This document shows, piece after piece, positions 8,004 to 54,425 of a stretch of DNA of 64,000 nucleotides. Numbering within the stretch: position 1 is the stretch's first letter; each line of letters starts with the position of its first letter. The notes under the pieces were generated by a model. It saw nothing but the letters and a program-made list of their open reading frames with translations. It was not told where the DNA came from and ran no database searches. This stretch comes from Symbiodinium sp. CCMP2592 (lineage: Eukaryota; Sar; Dinophyceae; Suessiales; Symbiodiniaceae), in contig CAJNDT010003835.1 in the NCBI GenBank assembly GCA_905221615.1, positions 267,501 through 331,500 on the forward strand. The letters are read 5' to 3'. The translations under genes and the position numbers were made by a program.

Positions 8004-8618
8004 GACGCTCCAGCGCCACTCCTGCGCCGGGGTTCAGCATGCCCATGAGGCCTGGCTTTATGAGGGCGCGTGGCTCTTGAGTTTTAGCTTCGGAAATAAG
8101 GGGAAATAGCTGAATATACTGCGATATACTTTATGAAGCCAAGGACTGTCATTTGCTTAACTGGCCGGCTTTTCGGGAGGATGCCACAGATCTGGCCAGC
8201 ACAGGTGCCTCTCATAGTACTGCATGGCACCTAGCCTGGCATCCAAGCGCCTTCTGTGAAGCCATTGAGACCCTTGAATGTTGATCATCTCCTGCAGAAG
8301 TATCTGACAGCCTAAGCGCAGCGAAGCTTACGAAGCTGTGCTGACGCGCCCTTTCAGCTTGCACAATGCTGAAGACTACCGTATTGTGCACTTTCTCACA
8401 TTCCTGCACTAGGTGCCCTAAGTTTCGGCAATCTTTGGAAAAAGGTCCAAGACGATGTTCCCACAGGCTCCAACATCCCGTGCATACTTAATGGCCCTTC
8501 AGGTGGCATCCCGGCTGTGAGAAAGAAGTCCCAAACACTTACAATCGCTACGGTCGCTACGGCTCAGGCCGAAGCTTGTCTATGTCAGTTAGTCACGGCC
8601 TATCCCGTGTGCATCAAG

Positions 8619-9134
8619 ATGTCTTGGGAGGGTGCTTCCGTGGTAGCCCCACCCATGCGGTCATTCTACGCCGTGGGCTCACTCCTTCAATGCGAGAGCG
8701 AGTTCGATCCGTTGTCGCGGAGCGCAGCGGTGAGCTTGTTCCATCCGCATGCACCGGTTCTAGGCAGCGTGGATGAGTTGCGCACCGATGAGATCGAGGT
8801 CGACTTCACGATGAAGCGGGTACATTGCCTCGGCGAAGCGGAGATGTCCAAGCTATGCCAAAATATCAAGAACGAGGAGTCTGCTTCTGAGTCAAACGGG
8901 TCGGAGTGTTCAGAGAGCTCCCCACCGGTTCGGCGAGGCCATGCAGACGATGTCATCAAGCGACTGAGTCGTTGGGGCGCACGGAGAGGATCGGAAGGCA
9001 CGCTGTGGGACTTTGACGACTCCGACGATCCCGACCGTCCCAGAAGCCCGTGGCGGGCCTCTTCACGATGGTGTGGCTTTGCAGGCATCCTGCGGCGCCA
9101 GAAGAAGCCCGCACCTGCCAGGCGTAGTAGCTGA
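8619..9134 (+). CDS. Duplicated unknown protein, copy A (171 aa)
   Basis: I do not recognise the family. The ATG at 8619 is chosen because similarity to copy B starts there in the same frame (MSWEGASVV). The paralogues share EIEVDFTMKRVHCLGE, then SKLCQN, a serine/glutamate-rich stretch, IKRLSRWGA, and a tryptophan/arginine-rich end with SPWRASSRWCGFAGILR. Differences are mostly conservative and keep the frame open, which supports real coding. There is no signal peptide or membrane segment. The arginine-rich C-terminus could bind nucleic acid or a partner, but that is inference. Extra exons cannot be excluded. Confidence 0.6.
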   Translation: MSWEGASVVAPPMRSFYAVGSLLQCESEFDPLSRSAAVSLFHPHAPVLGSVDELRTDEIEVDFTMKRVHCLGEAEMSKLCQNIKNEESASESNGSECSESSPPVRRGHADDVIKRLSRWGARRGSEGTLWDFDDSDDPDRPRSPWRASSRWCGFAGILRRQKKPAPARRSS

Positions 9135-9690
9135 GAGCTGAAGAACTCTCCTCTCTCTGTCCCGAAGGGATGGAGATCGAGTTCCAGTCCTCATTGAGTT
9201 GGATCATCAGGTTCCATCTCCAACGAGTTTAAGGGTACAACGCAGCACAGGCGAGCCTGCGGGCTGGAAGCCACACCAGGCTTCGAGCTGTGCAGCCAAG
9301 ACATTCGTGGTTTAGGGATTGTACCCAACTGCCCGGACGCAATAAGGGATGTTTAGGATAAACCTTTAAGCCCTATACATCAAGCCCAGTGTTGCACTGA
9401 CTGGTCTGGAAGTTGCCGGCACTGTGCGCGTGCGAGAGTCGAATCGAAACCCGTAGTAATTAAAAGGACAGTTTAGCTTTGTAGATGAGTAGGTAACCTT
9501 TAACTTTTGGGGCTTACCATAGTTCAATAGGTGAACCTGTTTTGAGCTAAGGCACTCAGCCCAAATGTTAGGATAAAGGACACATCGAGGCACGGTTTCT
9601 TTGCTTCCGCAGGCTGCGAAGAGCTCAACGGGATGAAGCCCTGGAGCTCACACGTCCCTTGACAATGCTACGGTGTACCGAACTCCAATA
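9135..9690. other. Downstream flank of copy A, no gene
   Basis: No coding is supported. A copy of the GCGAGAGTCGAA word common in this window is at about 9428. Confidence 0.35.
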
Positions 9691-9793
9691 TGGGAGTTTC
9701 CGAAAATAGGGGACCCTCATATAGTACCCTAAATAGTAGGATCCTCATAAGGAACCCCAAAATAAGGTACCCCCAATTTTCGGAAACTCCCAT
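9691..9793. mobile_element. MITE-like element, family A copy 1
   Basis: TGGGAGTTTCCGAAAAT at the left is matched inversely by ATTTTCGGAAACTCCCAT at the right. The interior has GGATCCT and a TAGGGTACT-like block. The element is about 103 bases with no coding. Other copies are at 14334-14438, 18521-18625, 18998-19042 (right half only), 19806-19910, 21627-21716, 33005-33426 (expanded, in an intron) and 33811-33916. Confidence 0.85.
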
Positions 9794-12630
9794 ATTATAT
9801 CCTCTGAGAATTGTTAAGGGTATAGGGCTTAGGAGGCCCCTGTAATGTGAAGTCCTTCCCGAGAACTCGGTAGAGCGTTCGAACACTCGCACGGTCCGCA
9901 CCAGGAGAAAATGTTGCCCTCACGAGAGTGCTTTGCTTCGCTGTGCACCTCCGAATATACTATAGCATATCTGCCAAATAGTCTACTATATACTACATTA
10001 TGGTATATTGCAACAAATTGTACTCATGTACTCTCATCAACTGCGGATCAGCATTCTGAGCAGGGGCAGCCCACTAAAGTATTTTTTTGCCCGAGTATTG
10101 TGCATCTGTAGATTTTCCGATGCCTGCATTCAGTCAACGAAGAGCGGGGGGCATCTCAGCTGCATCCAGCCTTTCGGGGGGAAGACAAGGATCTGCAACG
10201 GGACAACACATCAAGTGCCAAGGCATGCGTTGTCCTTCGGGCGGTTTTGGAAGCTGATTTATGAAAGTATGTTGTCGTAGATTATGGCTCATTCTGATTG
10301 GTTATTGAAGTATACGACATACAATGTACGATACCATGTTATAGTACACTCTAGTCTTGCTTCTCCGGTTGGAACTCCCCTTCTCCACTTCGCAGCTCTG
10401 CCTGCTCTAGCTACAAATTCGGCATGGAGATTGCGACGGTGACGTGTTACTTTAAGCTGTGAGTTTAAGTCGGGTGCCTCAAAAGGTGGGATGAAGGTAG
10501 GTAGGATGAAGGATCCCTTATCTAAGGATTCTAACCCAGATACCTTCATCCCACCATGGGGGCCCTGGGAGTCTGCATGTAGCGGTGCGTCATGGCGCAT
10601 CCTTTCCGGTTAGGCAGCACCTCCGGCAGTGCGTACTGTTCGAAACGAAGCTTCGGTGAAAGCAAACATAGGGACTGCAATAAGGATTAGAACGGGTCTC
10701 GGGGTATGTTATACTACTCGGGGATGGTACATTTCTTGATAGCGTGAATTTCAATAGACAGAACAGACCCATAATGCTACGACATATGCCAATACCCTGT
10801 CCCACTCAGCACGCGGAGAAAGCCTTGCCTTCACGAGAGTTCGTTGCTTCTGCTTCGCACTGCTCAGCTCCGAAAACGGACTAGCATTCTTAGCAGATGC
10901 AGCCCAGTGACTTTTGCGCTTGTGTCTTGCGAAGGGGTGATTTCCCATGCCTCCATTCTTCAAAGACGTTCGGAGGAGGGAGGGCATCTCAATTCGGTCC
11001 AAACCTATCCTGCAGAGGGACAACCGGAATCAAGGCATGCATTGCAAATTCCGGCAGTATTGGAAGCTGACTTATGAACGTATCCTATCGTAGGTAATGG
11101 TTTATTATATTCCATTCTGGTTTGTTTACGTGTAGTGCAGTATTATGTATTACAATAACCGCTAGTATACAAGTACTATAAGTGCTACAACATGCTGCCT
11201 CTTCGGTTGGACCACCCCTCCTGCCACTTCGCAGATCTGCGCCGGCTTCTGTACAGTTCGGCATAGATACTGCGACGGTGATGTTGCTCTTTCAAGTGAT
11301 TCAAGTGTCAGTCTAGTATAGGGGCCCTAATAAGTACCTATACCTATACTGTTTTGGGGCTCCGTATTATAATCATAGCATAGTATACCCACAATCCGAT
11401 TCTGGCCCCCCTCAGCCACGGTCAAGTTACCATGGAGACAAAGCCGAACTCCCGGCGGAGCCCATGATGTACAGGTGCGTCATGGTGCATCCTTTCCGGC
11501 TTGGCAGCACTTGCGGCAGCACAGTGGGACTGGTTTTTGAAAGGCAATGTAGGGCCGTACTAGTGTTGAGATGGGCCTCGCACTACAAAGGGGGGCCACA
11601 ACAAGCCCCACAGAGCTCGCTGCTGGCTGTCCACCTGTCTCCCCTTCTTCAACCCTTTAACATGGAAACGGCGGGCAAATGCCCGCATTGTCTTTCAAGT
11701 GTAGCAGGGCGCAGATATGCAGGAAGCACGAGCCCCGTACTCTTGGCTGCACAGCCTTCTGCAGGCTCATGCAGCACTCACGAGGACGGGAACAAGAGCT
11801 TTTGCCCTGCACAGCGTTCTGCAGTCTCATGTTGCAGCTTCGACAGCCGCCAGAACCTACGTGAGGCCCCAACATGTAGCATACCGTATTGAAGCCAAAC
11901 TCTCTATCCGCGCAGACGTAGCTGGGCCGTGATTTCTGTTCTGGAGCATGGCTGCACATTCAAGGAAATATATGAATAAATCTTTTCGTTTGAGCGGCCT
12001 TTGTGCGCTTCCCTCTCGGCGCAAACCGTCTTACGACAGTTCATGAGCCCTGGAGCTGAGATTAGTGATTAGGGGTTTGAGTAATCAGTACCAGGACATT
12101 CCCTTGTACCCTTCAATAGGGGTACATGGTCCCTAATTGTGGGTATTTGGGGTCTAAAAGGGGGTAGAAGGAGGGTCTAGGGAGTTTGTAAGAGTGTTGC
12201 GGCATAGTCCATACAAGCTATACTAGATGCTTGGCAGTCGCCTGTGTAGGGGCTGAGAGGGACCGCGCTGACAAGCTAGGAATTTCTTTTTGAGCGCATC
12301 GTGAAAAAGAGGGGGCTTTCGGTGAACGCGGTCTGATGCCAGCATTCGTATGGATGCAGGGCAGCGGAGAGAGAGAGAGAGAGAGAAAGGGTTTAAGGCT
12401 GCGTGGATGTTAATCTACAGAAAGGTTTGATAGAGGGTGCGGAATAATAACTAACATTTCTTCCTTCAGGTTCCTAGCTATGGATGGTTATACCCCTCCC
12501 CCCACCCCCCAAAAAATTGTCATTCTCCCCCCCCGCACCCCAAAACGCGACGTAGTCTCATTATCAAGGCCCCCATGGTATGCAGTCGTCCGAGACTAGG
12601 GCTAGGGGTTGTTTCGTGACTTTGCTGTGT
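9794..12630. other. Repeated flank of unit A, no gene recognised
   Basis: The segment 9890-10640 recurs at 10800-11560 and at 13660-14250. Frames here (for example 11464-11959) translate repeated DNA on both strands without a consistent conserved frame, so none is called. Confidence 0.45.
10485..10555. mobile_element. Short inverted-repeat element, family E copy 1
   Basis: GGTGGGATGAAGGTA pairs with TACCTTCATCCCACC over 71 bases. Copies occur at 14021-14092, inside the segmental duplication, and at 35993-36072, independently placed. The independent third copy suggests a mobile hairpin element. Confidence 0.75.
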
Positions 12631-13032
12631 GCTTTGGTGTGGTCCTAGGCTTTCAATGAAATTGAGCCCTCAGCTTTTGCAGAAGTGTCTGACACCCTAT
12701 GTAAGCGCACCGAAGCTTACAAAGCTCTGGCTCAACAGTCAACACAGCTTGCAACATGCTGAAGACTGCGGTGTTGCCGTACCGTACACTTTCTCACTAG
12801 GGATATTCCCAGAGATTCCAACATCCCTTACATAGTCAAGGCCCCCTGAGTACGCACTCCTGCTGTGATACAGGAACAGCCTATCGTTGCGACTTACAGC
12901 GCTAAACCTGGTTCCAAAGCCTTCCGGAACTAACCCCACATCCCACACACTCAACATGGCTACGATCGGCTACGGCTCAAGCAACATCCCTGGTTTATGT
13001 CAGTTAGTCACAGCTTCTCCCAGTGCAGCAAG

Positions 13033-13542
13033 ATGTCTTGGGAGGGTGCTTCCGTGGTAGTCACGCCCATAAGGTCATTCTACGCCGTGGACTCACTCCT
13101 TCGAAGCGAGAGCGAGTTCGATCCGTTGCCGCGGAGCGCACCGGTGAGCTTCTTCCATGCGCATGCACCCGTTCCGGGTGGCCTGGATGAGTTGCGTGCC
13201 GATGAGATCGAAGTCGACTTCACGATGAAGCGGGTACACTGCCTCGGCGAAGAGGAGATGTCCAAGCTGTGCCAAAATACAAAGAGCCAGGAGTCTGCTT
13301 CTGAGTCGAACGGGTCCGAGGACCCAGAACGCTCACCGGTTCGGCGAGGCCATGCCGACGTCATCAAGCGACTGAGTCGTTGGGGTGCACCGCGAGGATC
13401 GGCAGGCACGCTGTGGGACTTGGACGACTCCGAGGATCCCGACTATCCCACAAGCCCGTGGCGGGCTTCTTCACGATGGTGCGGCTTTGCAGGCATTCTG
13501 CGGCACCGAACGGAATGCCGGTCGAGTGGAAGTCCGTATTGA
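13033..13542 (+). CDS. Duplicated unknown protein, copy B (169 aa)
   Basis: Paralogue of the product at 8619, with the same start MSWEGASVV, the same EIEVDFTMKRVHCLGE core and the same SPWRASSRWCGFAGILR motif. It lacks one residue in the acidic linker (HADVIKR against HADDVIKR), and its last residues diverge after ILR (HRTECRSSGSPY), so the C-terminus is not conserved. The preserved frame with many substitutions suggests both copies have been under protein-level constraint. Function unknown. Confidence 0.6.
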   Translation: MSWEGASVVVTPIRSFYAVDSLLRSESEFDPLPRSAPVSFFHAHAPVPGGLDELRADEIEVDFTMKRVHCLGEEEMSKLCQNTKSQESASESNGSEDPERSPVRRGHADVIKRLSRWGAPRGSAGTLWDLDDSEDPDYPTSPWRASSRWCGFAGILRHRTECRSSGSPY

Positions 13543-14020
13543 GTTGGATCAGCAGGTCCCATCTCTAACAAGCCTAAAAGCACAGGCGAGCGTCCCTTGG
13601 GGTCGATAGCCACCACAACCCTCGAGATCGACGCTCAGATCCTGTGTAGCTGCAGTCGGTCAACAAAGTCGTGGTTTGGTGATGTTTAGGTTTGCCTTAA
13701 AGGGGGAAGACAAGGATCTGCAACGGGACAACGCATCAAGTACCAAGGCATGCGTTGTCCTTCGGGCGGTGTTGGAAACTGATCTATGAAAGTATGTTAC
13801 CGTAGATTGCTAGCTTGTTCTGAATTTTTCTTAGAGTGTACTGAAGTATGCTACGTACAATGAACTATACCATGTTATAGTAAACTCTAGTCCTGCCTCT
13901 CCGGTTGGAGCTCCCCTTCGCCGCTCCGCAGATCTGCATGCTCTAGCTGCAAATTCGTCTTGGAGATTGCAACGGTGACGTGTTCCTTTAAGCTGTGCGT
14001 TTAAGTCGGGTGCCTCAAAC

Positions 14021-14092
14021 GGTGGGATGAAGGTAGGTAGGATGAAGGCCCCTTGTTTATGGACTTTAAGCCCCAGCTACGTTCATCCCACC
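14021..14092. mobile_element. Short inverted-repeat element, family E copy 2
   Basis: Counterpart of 10485-10555 within unit B. The ends GGTGGGATGAAGGTA and TACGTTCATCCCACC differ by one base. Confidence 0.7.
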
Positions 14093-14333
14093 ATAGGGGC
14101 CCTGTGAATCTACATCTGTAGCAGTGCATCATTTCGCATCCTTTTCGGCTAGGCAGCATCTGCGGCAGTGCGGACTGTTCGAAATCAAGCTTCTGTGAAA
14201 GCAAACATAGAGGCTGTAGCAAGGATTCGAACGGGATGGTACACTACGGCTTTGGTGGCGTGAATTGGGAAAACTCCAGATCTCTTAATAGAGCAGACAA
14301 CACAGAGGATGCTGCCGACTGTCTGTACATATG

Positions 14334-14438
14334 TGGGAGTGTCGGAAAATTAAGGGTACCTTATTTGGGGCTTCTTATGAGTAGGATCCTACTATTTAGG
14401 GTACTATATTAGGGTCCCCTATTTTCGGAAACTCTCAT
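14334..14438. mobile_element. MITE-like element, family A copy 2
   Basis: The ends are TGGGAGTGTCGGAAAAT and ATTTTCGGAAACTCTCAT. The interior carries GGATCCTACTATTTAGGGTA as in the other copies. Confidence 0.8.
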
Positions 14439-15662
14439 GTCTCCACTCTGAACCAACCTTTGAACATGGAGACGTCGGTCAAACGCGCTGCAAAACATTT
14501 CCAGTAACTGCACGCCCTCTTTGTGCCGTTCATTGCCCTTCCTGGTTTGCGCTGTTTTTGCGTGCTCTCGGCGCAGATCAGTGCGAATCACCGTCATATT
14601 TTCCCTGTCCAGCACAGCCTTCGGCAGGCTCAGGCAGCACTCACAAGGCATGTGCGGCAGAAGAACACGAGCTTTTTTCCTGCAGGGCATTCTGCAGGCT
14701 CATTTCGCAGCTTCGCCAGCCGGATTTTGGGGTCGATCACCAGTGTCATGCCCTTAAGAGGCTTGAAGCAAATCAGGTTATAACATTTAGGGTGTAGGGG
14801 TGAAGTCAAACTGTTTGTCCGAGCAGACGGAGCTGGGCTGTGCTTTCTGCAACGTGGCTGCGACTTCCAAGAAATACACATTAAATGCATAATGAATCTC
14901 CTCCTTTCCGCGGCCTGTGCGCACCTCCCTCGCTCAGAGCAAGCCCAGATGTCCCCACAGCAGTTCATACACCCTGGAGCTGAGTATAGGGATGTTTACG
15001 GGTTCGAATAATCAGTCGTATCCCCGCTTAGCCCCTCTATGTATAAAAATCATCAGATGAATATATATATATATATATATACACACATTTTTGATATACG
15101 CAATGAAGATGATTTGACATGGTTTGTGCAACTGCTTGTTGCGAGGGACGGTGCTCACAAACTAGGGATTTCTTTTTGACCAGAACGAACGGTGAAAAAG
15201 TTTCGGTGCACCCGGTCTGATACCAGCATTTTCATAGCTGGAGATAGGGAGGAAACCCTGGTTTCATTATTGGGCCCCGACAGTATGGTGGCATCCGAGA
15301 CTAGGGGTTGTTTCGCGATTTCTCGCGCGAGAGGTAGCTCTTCGTCCTTTTGCAGTGTCGTAGTGGCTTCCGTAGTGTGACGTCACATGTTGTGAAGCTG
15401 CTCAGTCGCCCTCAGCCCGGGCACCGGAGTTCTAGTATTCTAGTACTAGCGCCGGGTTTCCCGCCCTGGCCCAGTCTATTTTACTTTTCAAAGGAAGCTT
15501 CCGGCACAGAGGCGGTGTTTGACTTTCTCCGATTGCGAAGCAAGTAACTGCATTATGGGAGAGTTAAAGAGAATCAAAGAGCCAGGCTCAAGGCATTTTA
15601 AGGTTCAGGGATTTAGGGTTTCAGGTTTGAGCATTGCAAAAAAAGGGGTTTACCCCAGCCGT

Positions 15663-17901: not shown

Positions 17902-19265
17902 ATGTCAAGATATGCCAAGTCTCCTAGTCTTTCACAACCTCCAAAGCTCATGGCACACATCCCGGAGCCGGTGGAGGCTGCGACAGGTCCGCCAGGAGCA
18001 CCATCCCCGACCTCCCAAGGGCTCGAAGAGGGCGAAGCGGCCGTGCCCGAAGCGCAGCCGCAGGCAGAAGAGGAAGTTCGGGGCCCCGAGTCCTTAGAGG
18101 AGTCCCCAGAGGAGTCTCCAGATGAGCCAGTGGCAGAGGCCGATGCAGACCCGTCGCCCAGGGCGCTGGAAAGTGAGAGCAGGGGAAGCTTCCTGGCCAC
18201 TGCGCCTCAGCCGGAGCACGGCTATGCCAGCGACATGAGCAAGCTGTCTGTGTCCAACACAGGCTACAGCTACCCACAGTTTGTGGAGCGCTTCAAGGAC
18301 CAATCCGGCAGTTCAGAAGACCCCCTTCCCTACATCGTTTCGTTTGTTAGTTCCTCTACCATACCTCACAAAAGATAGCCTAAGCCAACGACGAAAAGGC
18401 CCCCCCCTCTTCTCAAGGATCACTCTGCCAAACCCTGAACCCTAAAGATGCGGGCTTTGTCCTTGCTAGGTAGGAGGGAAAAAAGATGGCTGTGTGCGAG
18501 TGTGAGCGTCGAAAACCATCTGGGAGTTTCCGAAAATCCGGGATACCTCATTTTGGGGTCCTTGTAATAAGGATCCTACTATTTAGGATACTACGTTAGG
18601 TTCCCCTATTTTCGGAAATTCCCATCTTGTCAAGGGCCAATCTGCCCAGCCCTGAACCCTAAACCCATCTTTTCACAAACCAATCTGCCAAACCCTGAAC
18701 CCTAAACCCTAAACCATATGTTCTATCATGTCTTCACACCATCAATTTACGAACTTACTGGTGTGACTCACCTTTGCTTGTGCTCGGAGTCCTATGAGTC
18801 GCCCCTCTTGCTACCCATTATAGGATCCTGAGGGAGAGTGAGTCACCTGGGCACGGTCACTTTATGTGTTGTTATGAACTTGTTGCTTGTACTTGACTGC
18901 CTCTCCTAGTGATGTCTCACTCAGCAGACTCCGAACCACATGCCTCGCCTGGATTGTCCGAGTGTGAGCGCCGAAACCCTAAACCCTAAAAGGACCGATT
19001 TAGGCTACTACATTAGGGTCCCCTGTTTTCGGAAACTCCCATCTTTTCAAGGACCAATCTGCCCAGCCCGTGGTGAACGAAGTGAGGGACTTCGTGAACC
19101 GCTTCCCGGCCAACCTCACGCGCCTGCAGGCGGCCCGCCGGATCCATGCTTTCCTGGCAGAGGCCCGGGGAATCCCGAGTTGAGGTTGTTTGACGTTACT
19201 GTGCTCTATATATAAAAATGTGAGCATAGATAAATATGTATATATATATATATGTATATAAATAA

Positions 19266-19310
<45 letters not shown>

Positions 19311-20708
19311 CATATTTTTGTTTAAAAACCCTAAAGACCACCACACACGAGTGTGAGCGCCGAAAGACCACCACACAAAGAAGCCTCAAAACCCTTAACC
19401 GATTTCAAGAAGCTTTCAGGTGACTCCAAAGCTCCTGGTGGCTAAAGCCTTCCGGGACGATGGCGAAAGCATCGCCTCAGAGCTTGCGAATGAAGGCTTG
19501 GAGAAGTTTGTGGCTCCTGGGCCCCGAAGGGTAATGTAGGGGCCTAGATAGTTACCCATAGTTCTTCGGGGGGTTCCTTATTGTAATTATAGTATCATGG
19601 GCCCCAAGACCCTATTCTAAGTATTAAGGCCTCTATACTTATAACTCTACTAAGGTCTCTCGGATTTAAGCATTTAGGGCTTAGGTTTCAGGGTTCAGGG
19701 CTTGCTTATGACAAAAAAAGGCATGGGCCGATTATGCAGGGGCTGCAAGGAAACCTAGCACTTTGGACCCTTAGAGCTCCCTTTGAGAAGCCCTATAAGC
19801 CCTATGGGATGTTCCGAAAATTAGGGATACCTTATTTTGGGGGTCCTTATATTAAGGATCCTATTATCTAGGGTACTTTTTTAGGGTCCCCTATTTTCGG
19901 AAACCCCCACCCTATGAAAACACATCTTGAGAGTAACCTAGTAAGGTAGGTAACCTTTAACCGTTTTGGGGTATCCTTTAGTTCGCCGAGGCCTAGGATA
20001 GTGGACTGGTAGGTTATGAAGGGGATGCTGGGGAGAATCGAGGTCCTGAAGCTATACAAATTGCTCTTCCGCCACGATCCCGCCGACATCCGGGAGGACG
20101 AGAGAGTGGAACAGGCACTTCGAAGTGCTGCCAAAGGGGCGAGCACGATTCAAGCTGCCGTCTCCAAGTTCGACACGAAGCAGCTCGAGGTTTTTGATGC
20201 TGCGGTGCTGGAGCTGCAGATGGTGGAGCAGCACCGGGCGCCAAGGGATAAGCTGAGCTGCTTCGTGAATGCCATCCGCCTCGTCGAGAGCATCGTGGTA
20301 GAGCGGGTCTTCCGGCAAAGAGGAGAGGGCCAGCAGTCGAACTGGGAGCAGCTTCTGGCTGCTCTCATTTTGAAGGCTTCACCCCCAAATCTCTATTCCA
20401 ATCTGGAGTTTACTGCAGCTTTCAGACATCCATCGCTCATGGGCCCCGATGAACGGAAAGCCCTTGCCGATCTTGCCTCGGCTTTCCTCGCTGTCATCGG
20501 CGGCAGCTCTCGGCGTCTTGCTTCCGCTGAGCTCGCGGAGAACTCCGCAGGCCAGTCCGGCTCCATGCCCTTGTGGCTGATGGATGCTGGTGTAACTTTC
20601 AACTTTTCTGACCGCTCCCCGGATGACCTCTCCCTGGGAGAGGTGGACGAGCTCCTGGACGAGTACCAGAGGATGATTCGTGCCATACGAGACCTCATCT
20701 CCACTTAG
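17902..20708 (+). CDS. VPS9-domain protein, probable Rab5-class GEF
   Basis: Four exons join in frame: 17902-18336, 19067-19162, 19420-19512 and 20043-20708, giving about 429 residues. Residues 1-120 are acidic and proline/serine-rich; PQFVERFKDQSG follows. The VPS9 domain then begins with VVNEVRDFVNRFPANLTRLQ, continues through GLEKFV and KLYKLLFRHDP, the core APRDKLSCFVNAIRL, and ALILKASPPNLYSNLEF. Families with this domain exchange GDP for GTP on Rab5-type GTPases at early endosomes. The conserved Asp of PRDK is present. The family's catalytic Tyr in the later LIY-type helix appears as Ala here (LLAALILKASPP). Introns 2 and 3 fit GC donors, and acceptors before exons 3 and 4 are AG|G. No ubiquitin-binding zinc finger was seen. 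Exon-1 donor and start are less certain than the domain call. Confidence 0.85.
18337..19066 (+). other. Intron 1 of VPS9 gene, built from repeats
   Basis: It holds a GCTAGGTAGG-family copy, a full family A element (18521-18625), CCCTAAA words and a right-half family A element ending at 19042. Four related stretches with CCAATCTGCC(C/A)A (about 18411, 18635, 18677 and 19048) appear. The last of these supplies the 3' splice site, so the acceptor region itself looks amplified. Confidence 0.6.
18521..18625. mobile_element. MITE-like element, family A copy 3
   Basis: TGGGAGTTTCCGAAAAT to ATTTTCGGAAATTCCCAT, about 105 bases, within intron 1 of the VPS9 gene. Confidence 0.8.
19200..19312. repeat. 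(TA)n tract in VPS9 intron 2
   Basis: An imperfect TA/AAATA tract lies inside the second intron. It separates exon 2 from exon 3. Confidence 0.9.
19806..19910. mobile_element. MITE-like element, family A copy 4
   Basis: A diverged copy with GATGTTCCGAAAATTAGGG at the left and CCCCTATTTTCGGAAACCCC at the right. It lies in VPS9 intron 3. Confidence 0.75.
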
Positions 20709-21626: not shown

Positions 21627-21716
21627 TGTGAGTTTCCAAAAATTAGGGGTACCTGATTAAGGATCCTACTATTTAGGGTACTATATTAGGGGCCCCTATA
21701 TATTCGGAAACTCCCA
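21627..21716. mobile_element. MITE-like element, family A copy 5
   Basis: TGTGAGTTTCCAAAAATTAG to TATTCGGAAACTCCCA, about 90 bases. The shared GGATCCTACTATTTAGGGTA core is present. Confidence 0.75.
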
Positions 21717-26085: not shown

Positions 26086-26840
26086 TCAAAACGCTGTTGG
26101 AAGTTTATGAAAAAGCATATTATTAACATCCTTGGCGTTGGTGTTTATGTAGCAGAACGCGTAAGGAGCAAAATTAACGGCCTGTTGATACATATCATAC
26201 AGTGTTTTCTTATCAACTAGCGCGCTGTTTTCTTCTAGGAAGCTATTAACTTCATTCATATTCTTCAACCTGAATATACACAAAGCACTAGCATTTAAGC
26301 GAATTATCGGTGCCACGACATTGTATTTGGGTGGATAATATACACGAGATGGCGTTATGTCTTCCATGAGTAAATAATCCGTGAAGAATGCTGGAGTATC
26401 TTACAAATTTAGGGCCATCCGCAAAATCATCAACAACTATCAAGACGCTAAACAAATCCTTTTGTTTATTTTTCTTCTGAAAGTCAATGACTTTATGCTG
26501 TGTTTCTATTAACTTCTTCAATGCTATAGGGTCGTATTCTTCATAATAAACTTGCTCCTTTTCAGTATCAACCCTCACCACATCGGTTATATATTTCTTA
26601 ACGGGCGTCCATGTGTCATCAACATTAACGGTCGGCGAAAAAATGTAAATCCTTTCAAAGGAGTTTCGGTAGATTTTTAATATTAGGTTTTGGATTTTGG
26701 ATAAGCACCGTCGGGTCACCCGTTGATGAAGCCACGCATAACATCCTAGCGGGTAATCTGGGCATCATTTCATATTTAGAGTTTTTGTATTTGTATTCGG
26801 GTATGTCTATTGGTTCTACGGTTGGAATTGTTTCACTCAT
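26086..26840 (-). pseudogene. Broken A32-type viral DNA-packaging ATPase
   Basis: Three successive minus-strand frames (26840-26655, 26719-26288 and 26367-26086) carry consecutive parts of one protein, so at least two frameshifts separate them. Piece 1 holds the P-loop region, but the expected G-K-S/T is read as TGDPT, so the nucleotide-binding Lys is absent. Piece 2 has a Walker B strand, VLIVVDDFAD, and the downstream TQ-type sensor region (CILSTQ). Piece 3 has the conserved IRLNASALCIFRLKN block and a DKKTLYDMY helix. Intact relatives pump viral DNA into capsids. This copy is most likely non-functional. Confidence 0.85.
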
Positions 26841-31635: not shown

Positions 31636-34306
31636 GATCAGGGTGATCACTCCGCCAGAGCTCCTTGCGAAGCTTCACAAGACTCATGGAAGCTTTGTCA
31701 TAGTTGGGTAACATTTTACATTTTTGACGGGACAAAAAACCCAATAAGGATTAACATGTGCATGTTTAATCCTATCCCAACAATGAACCAGGAAGGATCT
31801 CGGGATCCACAGCCACCTTTGGAGCGCCCTTCTATGGGGACACGGTGAAAGGTCGGCTGGTTTATGGCATCTCAAAGGGCGACAACCACTGCACCCCGCA
31901 GGACTACGATGTCCCGAAGCCCGAGACTTTCGAGACGGAAGGTAGCAGCAAGTACAGGAAGGTGAAGCTTCTTAACATCATCATCGTGCGTCGGGGGAAA
32001 TGCTCGTTCACCACGAAGGTTAAGGTGGCTCAAGACAAGGGCGCCCATGCAGTGATCATTGTGGATCGCGAGGACTCTTCCTATACAGCCGAGGGCCTCG
32101 CGAACGTAATCGTTGCTGACGATGGCTATGGCAGCGGCGTCCACATTCCCTCTATCTTGATCGCGAAGGATGACGGGCAGGAGCTCATCAATGAAGCCCA
32201 GTCTACGGAGGTCGTCATCGAGTTAGCATGGAACGTGCCAACTGATCACGTCGTCACCATGGACATGTGGATGAGCTCGGGCTCCAGTGAGTCCATGCAG
32301 TTCATCAAGGACTTCGCCCCTAAACGAAAGGAGCTCAACCAGGTAATGATTTTCAACCCACACTATGCAGTCTTCTCCATGGAGAAGACGAACCCAGCGG
32401 TCTACTCGGGGGTCTGTCTCGATGAAGGCAAGTACTGCGCGAATGATCCTGATGGTGCCGGTGATGTGACGGGCAAGGACGTCCTTCTTGAGGATGTGCG
32501 GCAGCTCTGTATCCATGAAACTACCAAGGTCACCAGGGCTAGTATGGAGGTTATGCAGGGCCTCAAGATTGTGGAGTATGCAGAGAAGTATTGGGACTAC
32601 ATGGAGAAATATCCCCTCAGGTGTCCCGTAGATGGCTCGGGATCCAAGAAGTTCGGCGAAGAGTGTTCCATCCAAGTCATGAAGGAGGTGAACATAGACG
32701 CTGACGAGATCATCCAGTGTGCGATGACGACGAGGCATTATTCCTTGTTTTTCAGTTACTATGCTCCCTGACACTTCGAATCACCGACAATCCTTAAATT
32801 CCTAAACCGCAAGGTCGGAAAAGCTGAAAGAACAGCTTGCGAATACGGCCTGGTCCGACCAAGCCATCAGGGTGAACGGCTGGCGCTTCAGCGGCGTCGT
32901 CACAGCAGACCTCGTGGTACGCGCGGTCTGCTCAGGGTTCATCCACGAGCCGACCGAGTGCGCGAACCTGATCGAGTTTCGGGATGTTTTCAAGCCATAT
33001 CAGGTGGGAGTTTCAGAAACTCACTACTTGTAGAACAGAATGGAACCCTTCTTTTTTACCCGAAGTTTTGTAGGACCATTATTGGAAGGACCCCAAAACG
33101 GAAGGGACCCAAAACTTCACAAAACTCTGAACTCTAAAGAGAAGTCTACGATCTGGTGTGGAGGATTCGGGGGTTGATGAAGAATCTACTATTTTAGAGT
33201 ACTACACTAATTACAAGGCTCCCCTATGGTTTAGGGTTCAGGGCTTAGGATTCTACTACTTAGGGTACTATATTAGGGTCCCCTATGGTTTAGGGTTCAG
33301 GGTTTAGGGTTTCGGCAGAGTCTGGGTTCAAAAAGGGTTTAGGGCTTAGGATTCTACTACTTAGGGTACTATATTAGGGTCCCCTATGGTGTAGGGTTCA
33401 GGGTTTAGGGTTTCGGAAACTCCTATAGTGTTTCGGGACAACTCTTGGCCTTCGCGCTATTCCCGGAGGTTCCGGTGAGTACCGGCGTGAGCTTCGGGGA
33501 GTTGCTCGCCTGGCTCTTAGCCACGATCGGCCTGGGCTTCGTCTGTATGCTCATGTACAAGAGGTACCTGAAGCTGGGCCTTTTTGTAGGATGCCCAGTA
33601 GTACCCTTATTCCCTTTTTGTAGTCCTAGGTTCCTTATGAAGTTACCCAATACCAAAAAGAGAGGCCTTTTTATTCTTAGGTTTCTGGGTATCCTGGTTT
33701 TTCAGGTGTTACCGGGTTTTAGTGTTTGGGCTTTGCTGCTCTTGGGATGTTCCGGGGAAGTTTAGGCTTTAGGGCTCATAAAACGACGAGCAGGGTGCCA
33801 CAGCTGTTTATGGGAGTTTCCGATAATGAGGGGTACCTCATTTTTGGGACCTTATAATCAGGATCGTACTATTTAGGGTGACTATATTAGGGTCCCCTGT
33901 TTTAGGAATCTCCCATCTGGTTTTGGTTTAGGAGAAAAGCCAAGGAAGAGGGAGATGCACAGCACGCTCAGGGAAGAGGTCATGCTGGAGGTGCAGGCAC
34001 AGATGGGCGACTATGCTCAACTCCGTGGTGCGTGAGGGTTGGGGCTTGGGGCTTGCATCGCTGAGCGGGAGAGTCTGGGTTTACATAAGTCTACATGGAT
34101 TGCAGTAGTATCACGCGGGTTGCTTAGGTTTTGCATAAAACTACCCTGCCTTTTTGTACATATCGGTAGAGTATGTGCGGTCATTTAGCGTTCAGGGTTC
34201 AGGGGTGCCTCAGCGTGGATCAGTCTCACCCCCCGCAGCAGACGGGGACGGAGATACCAGTTCATCTCGAGCACAGGAGAGAAGAGGTGCGGAAACAGGG
34301 ACATGA
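31636..34306 (+). CDS. Vacuolar sorting receptor (PA domain), 5' end missing
   Basis: Six exons join in frame: 31636-31707, 31796-32734, 32814-33003, 33409-33577, 33932-34027 and about 34239-34306 (last tentative), about 510 residues without the signal-peptide exon. The order matches plant-type vacuolar sorting receptors: an N-terminal strand (RIRVITPPELL), a PA domain (TATFGAPFYGDTVKGRLVYG through VVRRGKCSF-type and AVIIVD segments), a cysteine-bearing central domain (FNPHYAVFSMEK), NTAWSDQAIRVNGWRFSGVV and AVCSGF, a membrane span (LLAWLLATIGLGFVCMLMY), and a cytosolic tail with DYAQLR. YAQL fits the YxxPhi adaptor signal. Such receptors carry soluble hydrolases to vacuole-like compartments. 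EGF repeats of the plant proteins are absent. The exon 2/3 intron has a GC donor and most acceptors are AG|G. Confidence 0.88.
32735..32813 (+). other. Short GC-AG intron in sorting-receptor gene
   Basis: ACGAG|GCATTATTCC ... CCGCAAG|GTCGG restores the frame, with phase 2 on both sides (AG+G = Arg). The unspliced frame stops at once, so removal is needed. This is the clearest GC donor in the window. Confidence 0.75.
33004..33408 (+). other. Intron formed by an expanded family A element
   Basis: The exon ends CAG and the intron begins GTGGGAGTTTC, the family A terminal sequence one base in. The element's other end, TTTCGGAAACTCCTAT, finishes at 33426, 18 bases past the chosen acceptor TTTAG|GGTTTC. 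Between them, GGGTACTATATTAGGGTCCC and GGTTTAGGGTTCAGGG units occur in three rounds. Splicing here keeps phase 0 and makes the inner terminal repeat encode GFGNSYS. Confidence 0.65.
33811..33916. mobile_element. MITE-like element, family A copy 7
   Basis: TGGGAGTTTCCGATAATGAG to TTTTAGGAATCTCCCAT, in the intron between the membrane-span exon and the tail exon of the sorting receptor. It ends 16 bases before that exon's acceptor. Confidence 0.8.
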
Positions 34307-38475: not shown

Positions 38476-38599
38476 CCCAGACCCCCGGGAGGATCTAGAA
38501 AGTAGATCCCCAAATTTGGGGCCCTATACTACCAAGGGTACTTTATATAGGAACCCCTCATTAAGGGATCTACTTTTTGGATCCTCCCGGGGGTCTGGG
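38476..38599. mobile_element. Inverted-repeat element, family I
   Basis: CCCAGACCCCCGGGAGGATC at the left is mirrored by GATCCTCCCGGGGGTCTGGG at the right with no mismatch over 20 bases. An inner pair AGTAGATCCC/GGGATCTACT continues the stem. Single copy, recent-looking. Confidence 0.8.
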
Positions 38600-53930: not shown

Positions 53931-54425
53931 CAGAACGTTGCATGAACGAAGCAGAACCTTAGGACGAAGCAGAACGTTGGGGGCTTTTTAAAAGTGCCGA
54001 GGGTCCTTCTGATCTCCAGCAGCTTGGTGGACAGCCATTTGTCCATGGCTCCGCGTGACTTCCTGCGACAGTGGTTCTGCTTGGCCCGTTTCCCTAAGAC
54101 AACGGTTCTGCTTGGTGTGTTTCAGAAAAAAAATGGCACGGTGGCGGGCACGTGCACAAACTTTTATGTTGAAGCAGAACGTTGAGGCAGAACGCACTAT
54201 TTCTGCATTTCCTTGAAACACTCAATAATTTGGTTTCTAAGAGATTTTGCGTTTCATGGTTCTGCTTCAGCGTTCGTGTTTTGGCACGGTGGCGGACACG
54301 TGCGAAAACTTTTTTGCTCAAGCAGAACGTTGAGGCAGAACGCTCGGCGAAGCAGAACGCTCCCGCGCTTTCGGAGCCGAAGCAGAACGCTGCCTATCGC
54401 AAGCAGAACGTTGGAACCCTCGGAA
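53925..54425. repeat. Cluster of AAGCAGAAC / GTTCTGCTT motifs
   Basis: Around a dozen copies of (CG)AAGCAGAACGYT or its reverse complement in 500 bases. Two longer related units (about 54095-54195 and 54253-54343) each have GTTCTGCTT, then TGGCACGGTGGCGGRCACGT, then AAGCAGAACGTTGAGGCAGA, i.e. an inverted motif around a conserved core. Confidence 0.8.

What the first reader, a model, noticed from the sequence alone, without database searches (positions are those of the whole stretch)
33004..33426. An intron of the sorting-receptor gene is an expanded inverted-repeat element (introner-like)
The intron starts CAG|GTGGGAGTTTC, where TGGGAGTTTC is the terminal repeat of family A, found at seven other sites in this window. 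The matching right end GGAAACTCC lies just beyond the acceptor. The whole intron is therefore element sequence, internally amplified about three times. Transposon-born introns (introners) are known in dinoflagellates; a copy caught as an intron beside its intergenic relatives would be direct evidence for this family. It may also have added GFGNSYS to the protein.
Basis: partly seen in the sequence, partly recalled or inferred. Interest (0 to 1): 0.85.

Follow-up and report, generated by a model that had tools for sequence, protein, structure and literature searches.

The report
Intron packed with short mobile repeats
In a coral-symbiont-type alga, one intron of a protein-sorting-receptor gene is about nine-tenths made of copies of a very common short mobile DNA element and starts exactly at an element end; the intron may have been born from that element, but its other end does not fit a clean insertion, and it very probably does not change the protein as first thought.

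Summary
The intron is inferred from homologues, and its 5' end coincides with a family A terminal repeat. The acceptor was misplaced: none of the 120 listed homologues has GFGNSYSVSGQLLAFALFPE, and the closest resumes at 33469, so the intron is 33004-33468. The right terminal repeat (33416-33425) thus lies 43 nt inside the intron, and nothing need be added to the protein. Family A is a mobile ~100-bp MITE with 4-bp target duplications (20 of 39 complete copies perfect) and one empty site. About 90% of the intron is family A sequence, but composite: a diverged antisense copy at the left, then three sense right-half copies. Four of seven other copies in the window are intronic. A paralogue in the same genome has many introns and no detected family A, but no intron at this position; its nearest intron is 12 nt away. 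Birth by insertion at an AGGT exon site is plausible (~0.45); an old or shifted intron invaded by repeats is nearly as likely (~0.4). The genome-wide search for AGGT-flanked copies did not complete. Introners are already known in dinoflagellates.

The parts
31796..32734 (+). VSR/BP80 exon (PA domain part), one uninterrupted exon for P0001 residues ~54-371
32814..33003 (+). VSR exon ending ..FKPYQ| before the intron
33004..33468 (+). Corrected intron, 465 nt, CAG|GTGGGAG ... CCCGGAG|GTTCC
   Evidence: P0001 match starts at 33469; only two open-frame acceptors among 26 AGs tested; alignment of 120 homologues
33002..33005 (+). AGGT at the donor junction (possible left target duplication)
   Evidence: could equally be splice-site consensus
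33467..33470 (+). AGGT at the acceptor junction (possible right target duplication)
   Evidence: sequence; could equally be splice-site consensus
33005..33130 (-). Diverged, near-complete antisense family A copy; its outer end is the TGGGAGTTTC at the donor
   Evidence: inner part alone 14.0 bits, 0 of 500 shuffles; about 65-74% identity to genome copies over 57-107 nt, E down to 4e-8
33145..33239 (+). Diverged sense family A right half (1st)
   Evidence: E 3.4e-4; inner part E 0.005
33228..33315 (+). Sense family A right half with TTTAGGG-like extension (2nd)
33325..33425 (+). Sense family A right half (3rd, 98% to the 2nd over 83 nt) ending in GGAAACTCCTA
33426..33468 (+).
33469..33572 (+). 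VSR exon VPVSTGVSFGELLAW...YKRYLK (transmembrane part); exact end ambiguous by a few nt
33811..33915 (+). Complete family A copy inside the last VSR intron, 29 nt before the acceptor taken here; no matching target duplication (TTAT/ATCT)
33945..34035 (+). VSR last exon (cytosolic tail, stop); exact start ambiguous by a few nt
9691..9792 (-). Complete family A copy, target duplication ATAT
14334..14437 (+). Complete family A copy, target duplication ATGT; empty site in tandem paralogue near 11598-11700
18521..18624 (+). Complete family A copy, target duplication ATCT, in VPS9 intron 1
18990..19041 (+). Right half of a family A copy, ends 10 nt before the VPS9 exon at about 19052
19805..19909 (+). 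Complete family A copy in a VPS9 intron; CTAT repeated 3 nt off the right end
21627..21716 (+). Complete family A copy, target duplication AAAT, gene context not shown

Best explanation
Supported by the calls: the intron is 33004-33468; about 421 of its 465 nt are family A MITE sequence from at least two copies in opposite orientation; the outer end of the left copy is the 5' splice region; the exact position is intron-free in the intron-rich paralogue. Inferred: the window's gene is an intron-depleted, perhaps mRNA-derived, copy. A family A element inserted into its exon at the tetranucleotide AGGT. Its 4-bp target duplication left AG|GT before the element (donor GTGGGAG) and AG|GT after it (acceptor), so splicing restored the coding sequence exactly (FKPYQ|VPVSTG). 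Later a second copy landed inside, its right half was triplicated, and the original right terminal repeat next to the acceptor decayed.
For: Donor at the element end, the only one of 6,792 GT sites with GGGAGTTTC after it. Family A makes 4-bp duplications, mostly of form ANNT, and is mobile (empty site). AGGT at both inferred junctions. The coding sequence joins without gain or loss against P0001. The paralogue at C5383 reads through this position without an intron, has no family A match at E<=1, and breaks at about 15 places over the residues that are one exon in the window.
Against: No intact right terminal repeat before the acceptor: 14 of 437 AGGT sites, this one included, score as well. 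AGGT at both junctions is also what splice consensus gives. Of 20 perfect target duplications 19 are A[AT]NT and one is ACCT, the same as AGGT on the other strand, so AGGT is an unusual target. The other end of the left copy is followed by AACT, matching AGGT at 2 of 4 bases. The paralogue has an intron in the same phase 12 nt downstream, so a shifted old intron is possible. Family A copies in three other introns are nested inside them.
Confidence: 0.45

Rival explanations
1. The intron is old, or is the paralogue's nearby intron moved by 12 nt. It was invaded by several family A copies, one of which landed at the donor and supplied its first bases.
For: Nesting is common here: four of seven other copies lie inside introns away from the splice sites themselves, one of them with a perfect duplication ATCT that is no splice site. 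The paralogue intron is 12 nt away in the same phase, and the two other window introns in the 3' half also lie 2-4 codons from a paralogue intron. The 43-nt tail is not element-like.
Against: A landing exactly at the donor needs luck, and no AGGT follows the right named end inside the intron. A 12-nt intron shift with intact coding sequence is unusual (general knowledge).
Confidence: 0.4
2. The intron was gained in another way, such as a tandem duplication of exon sequence around an AG|G site, and family A arrived later.
For: In the neighbouring VPS9 gene the 14-mer TTCAAGGACCAATC occurs at both ends of intron 1, and sequence like the exon start recurs inside it.
Against: No comparable long repeat was reported between the two borders of this intron.
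Confidence: 0.13
3. One reading: one expanded element whose right end lies just beyond an acceptor at 33408, adding GFGNSYS.. to the protein.
For: The frame from 33409 is open and an AG|G exists there, so it could be a minor splice form.
Against: None of 120 listed homologues has the added segment; P0001 aligns from 33469; the addition would be 20 residues, not 7.
Confidence: 0.02

Closest known systems
Introners of Symbiodinium microadriaticum (family 1; Gozashti et al. 2022, PMC9860276; section 7 and passages read)
   Same: Short TIR element (their example spans 115 bp) with 4-bp target duplications; 5' splice site co-opted from the duplication
   Different: There the element carries its own 3' splice site. 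Family A ends have no AG, and here the right border does not fit. Sequence identity of the families could not be checked.
Dinoflagellate introner families (Roy et al. 2023; known here only through the summary in PMC11453091 passages)
   Same: Recent intron gain from many element families in dinoflagellates
   Different: No set of sibling introns was shown here
Amoebophrya introner elements (Farhat et al. 2021, PMC7789003, passages read)
   Same: Inverted repeats near intron ends and 3-5 nt direct repeats at the borders
   Different: Those are mostly non-canonical introns; this one is GT-AG, and its inverted repeat pair comes from two copies
MITEs (non-autonomous TIR DNA transposons)
   Same: Family A meets the structural features tested
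   Different: No transposase source or superfamily identified

Membership tests
MITE | Short element with terminal inverted repeats | tested here: met
   90-105 bp in six window copies, GGGAGTTTCCGAAAAT...ATTTTCGGAAACTCCC; coding capacity was not examined separately
MITE | Target-site duplication of fixed length | tested here: met
   4 bp perfect in 4 of 6 window copies, 11 of 18 copies near matches, 5 of 15 in 200 kb; chance for 4 of 6 about 3e-8. One of the 18 and one of the 15 (the latter perfect) are of the related GGGTGG type; the rule for 'complete' was slightly looser.
MITE | Empty site without the element | tested here: met
   14334 copy against tandem paralogue, score 72 against a maximum of 35 in 300 shuffles
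MITE | Mobilised by an identified transposase | not tested
   -
Introner | Both intron borders set by the element or its target duplication | tested here: inconclusive
   Donor fits; acceptor has AGGT but no significant terminal repeat, 14 of 437 sites as good
Introner | Many similar introns of the family at different positions | tested here: inconclusive
   Of the four introns with family A that I could place in the window, only this one starts at an element end; the genome-wide pattern search did not complete
Introner | Position without intron in relatives | tested here: inconclusive
   Exact position intron-free in the paralogue, but an intron lies 12 nt away; genes of other species not available as DNA
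Introner | Spliced out in RNA | not testable with these tools
   No reads; inferred from homologues
Vacuolar sorting receptor (BP80) gene | PA domain, transmembrane segment and tail similar along the whole length | tested here: met
   346 homologues at E<=1e-3 among 6,933 candidates, 120 listed; best 77% over 100% of the query; PF02225 and PF25011 precomputed for the listed hits

The most novel reading that the evidence does not exclude
An abundant MITE that prefers A[AT]NT targets makes ready-made GT-AG introns whenever it hits AGGT in an exon, and here it helped to give introns back to a sorting-receptor copy that had lost most of its original ones.
Probability: 0.3. Interest if true: 0.62.

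Novelty: new member of a known kind. Interest (0 to 1): 0.42.

Why it matters
The origin of spliceosomal introns is an open question, and dinoflagellates are a main testing ground. This genome holds an intron-rich paralogue and an intron-poor copy of one gene, plus an abundant element with a measurable target preference. Whether hits on AGGT become introns can therefore be counted directly. The case also shows how a plausible but wrong acceptor can suggest that a transposon changed a protein.

Tried and rejected
Rejected: acceptor at 33408 and the GFGNSYS addition. Rejected: 33005 and 33425 as the two ends of one insertion. Led nowhere: relatives of the gene or element in viral contigs and genome contigs (no match; 80 and 16 stretches with a pattern, none a relative). 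RNA folding of the intron pairs its start with the right repeat, but it is no more stable than shuffles (z -0.89, 19 of 100 at least as stable). A degenerate right repeat just before the acceptor was considered and is not significant. A spliced-leader relic, sequence recalled, was not found upstream of the gene within 6 mismatches; one match with 6 lies at 54302. L003 holds a family A copy with AGGT duplications, but I saw no clear coding frame across it (judged by eye). Passages of PMC6123633 and PMC2488372 were seen; neither speaks of introners in what I saw. In one search the query was the gapped alignment row of P0001; its numbering agrees. The breaks between its matches were counted by eye as introns without resolving each splice site.

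Full report
Setting. The window is C3835:267501-331500 of a 1.098-Gb genome in 5,383 contigs. Protein matches point to a Symbiodinium-like dinoflagellate: the receptor matches proteins of Effrenium voratum (66%) and Symbiodinium pilosum (64%), and the VPS9 gene matches VPS9A of Symbiodinium sp. CCMP2456 (76% over 68% of the query).

Gene model. The gene is a vacuolar sorting receptor (BP80). Of 346 homologues at E<=1e-3, 120 were listed. All 120 were aligned with the query; I printed 70 rows and counted the rest by script. Each of the 120 has 0 to 5 residues in the 20 columns of GFGNSYSVSGQLLAFALFPE, and none holds one of four words of it. P0001 (77%) reads PYVVPVSGGVSFGELLAW, and its match resumes exactly at 33469. 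Of 26 AGs from 33150 to 33479 only those at 33408 and 33468 leave the downstream frame open. Position 33468 is AG followed by G with a pyrimidine-rich run before it; that AG|G is usual in dinoflagellates is recalled, not from a call. The intron is therefore taken as 33004-33468. If 33408 were used, 20 residues would be added, not 7. No RNA data were available.

The element. A model of five window copies finds six complete copies and one right half outside the intron. When the element is taken as GGGAG...CTCCC, four of six complete copies have perfect 4-bp duplications: ATAT, ATGT, ATCT, AAAT. A fifth has CTAT three bases off. The copy at 33811 has none. The chance of four of six is about 3e-8. 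The 14334 copy is missing from the matching place of a tandem duplicate. In genome samples, 11 of 18 complete copies near matches and 5 of 15 in 200 kb, of which 5 kb read N, have perfect duplications. One of the 15 sits at a block edge and could not be scored fairly. One of the 18 and one of the 15 (a perfect one) are of a related GGGTGG type, and the rule for completeness was slightly looser. Of the 20 perfect duplications in all, 19 are A[AT]NT and one is ACCT. One search found 27 places in 200 kb, several of the GGGTGG type, so the family is abundant; the sample was chosen by similarity and is not random.

What the intron is made of. The left 33005-33130 is an antisense family A copy. It scores 20.5 bits. 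Its inner part without terminal repeats scores 14.0 bits, reached by 0 of 500 shuffles. It is about 65-74% identical to copies elsewhere in the genome over 57-107 nt. Then come three sense right halves, the last two 98% alike over 83 nt, ending in GGAAACTCCTA at 33425. Together that is 421 of 465 nt, short linkers included. The last 43 nt have no convincing relative in 327 kb. The 4-mers outside the named ends are AGGT and ATAG, so these ends are not one insertion; the inner end of the left copy is followed by AACT, 2 of 4 against AGGT. AGGT also stands at the acceptor, but the 26 nt before it resemble the terminal repeat no better than 14 of 437 AGGT sites do, this one included.

Where the relatives are. 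The VPS9 proteins place exons up to about 18297, at about 19052-19162 and 19420-19512, and from about 20043 (the borders are read from the sequence). Thus 18521-18624, 18990-19041 and 19805-19909 are intronic, and 33811-33915 lies in the last receptor intron. The other three copies were not assigned to genes.

The paralogue. P0001 also matches C5383:307765-314146. That gene runs through ..FVPYVVPVS without a break at the window's intron position; the next intron starts 12 nt downstream in the same phase, and the 7.5 kb hold no family A match at E<=1. Its matches break at about 15 places over residues 55-371, which are one exon in the window. The S. pilosum protein carries extra segments near two of those places that look like retained introns (inference), so the many-intron state seems older. 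The window copy thus looks intron-depleted, perhaps mRNA-derived. An intron near residue 54 seems shared, and no spliced-leader relic was found; both are against, or at least do not support, a complete mRNA origin. The three later window introns lie 2-4 codons from paralogue introns, so intron shifting cannot be excluded.

Judgement. The sequence facts favour a copy-specific intron with an element-born donor. The insertion model explains the donor, the precise coding join and the intron-free position in the paralogue, but not the missing right repeat or the unusual AGGT target. I give it 0.45 against 0.40 for an older or shifted intron filled with repeats. Introners are established in dinoflagellates (PMC9860276 section 7 and passages; passages of PMC7789003, PMC11453091, PMC10666404; PMC10522408 passages mention a search for them), so the kind is known.

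Noticed in passing
26288-26764 (-): Reading frame matching Pox_A32 packaging ATPase (E 1.3e-6) in a low-GC stretch (0.33 over 26-28 kb); possible endogenous virus-like element.
   Followed up: partly
18292-19069: VPS9 intron 1: the 14-mer TTCAAGGACCAATC occurs at both borders, and sequence like the exon start recurs three times between them; the donor may be GA, which dinoflagellates are reported to use (PMC11453091 and PMC6123633 passages).
   Followed up: partly
8285-15230: Tandem duplication including a gene for an orphan protein (84-86% over two long pieces; one homologue found) that supplies the empty site for one element.
   Followed up: yes
L009 and L010: The two stretches carry the same cluster of family A copies in opposite orientation, with TGGGAGTTTCAGAAA among them.
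   Followed up: no
38476-38599: Another inverted-repeat element with GGGAGGATC ends, weakly similar to family A.
   Followed up: no
L007 around 1480-1560: Another family A right end with a TTTAGGG-like extension before TTTCGGAAACTCCC, so the extended form occurs elsewhere in the genome.
   Followed up: partly
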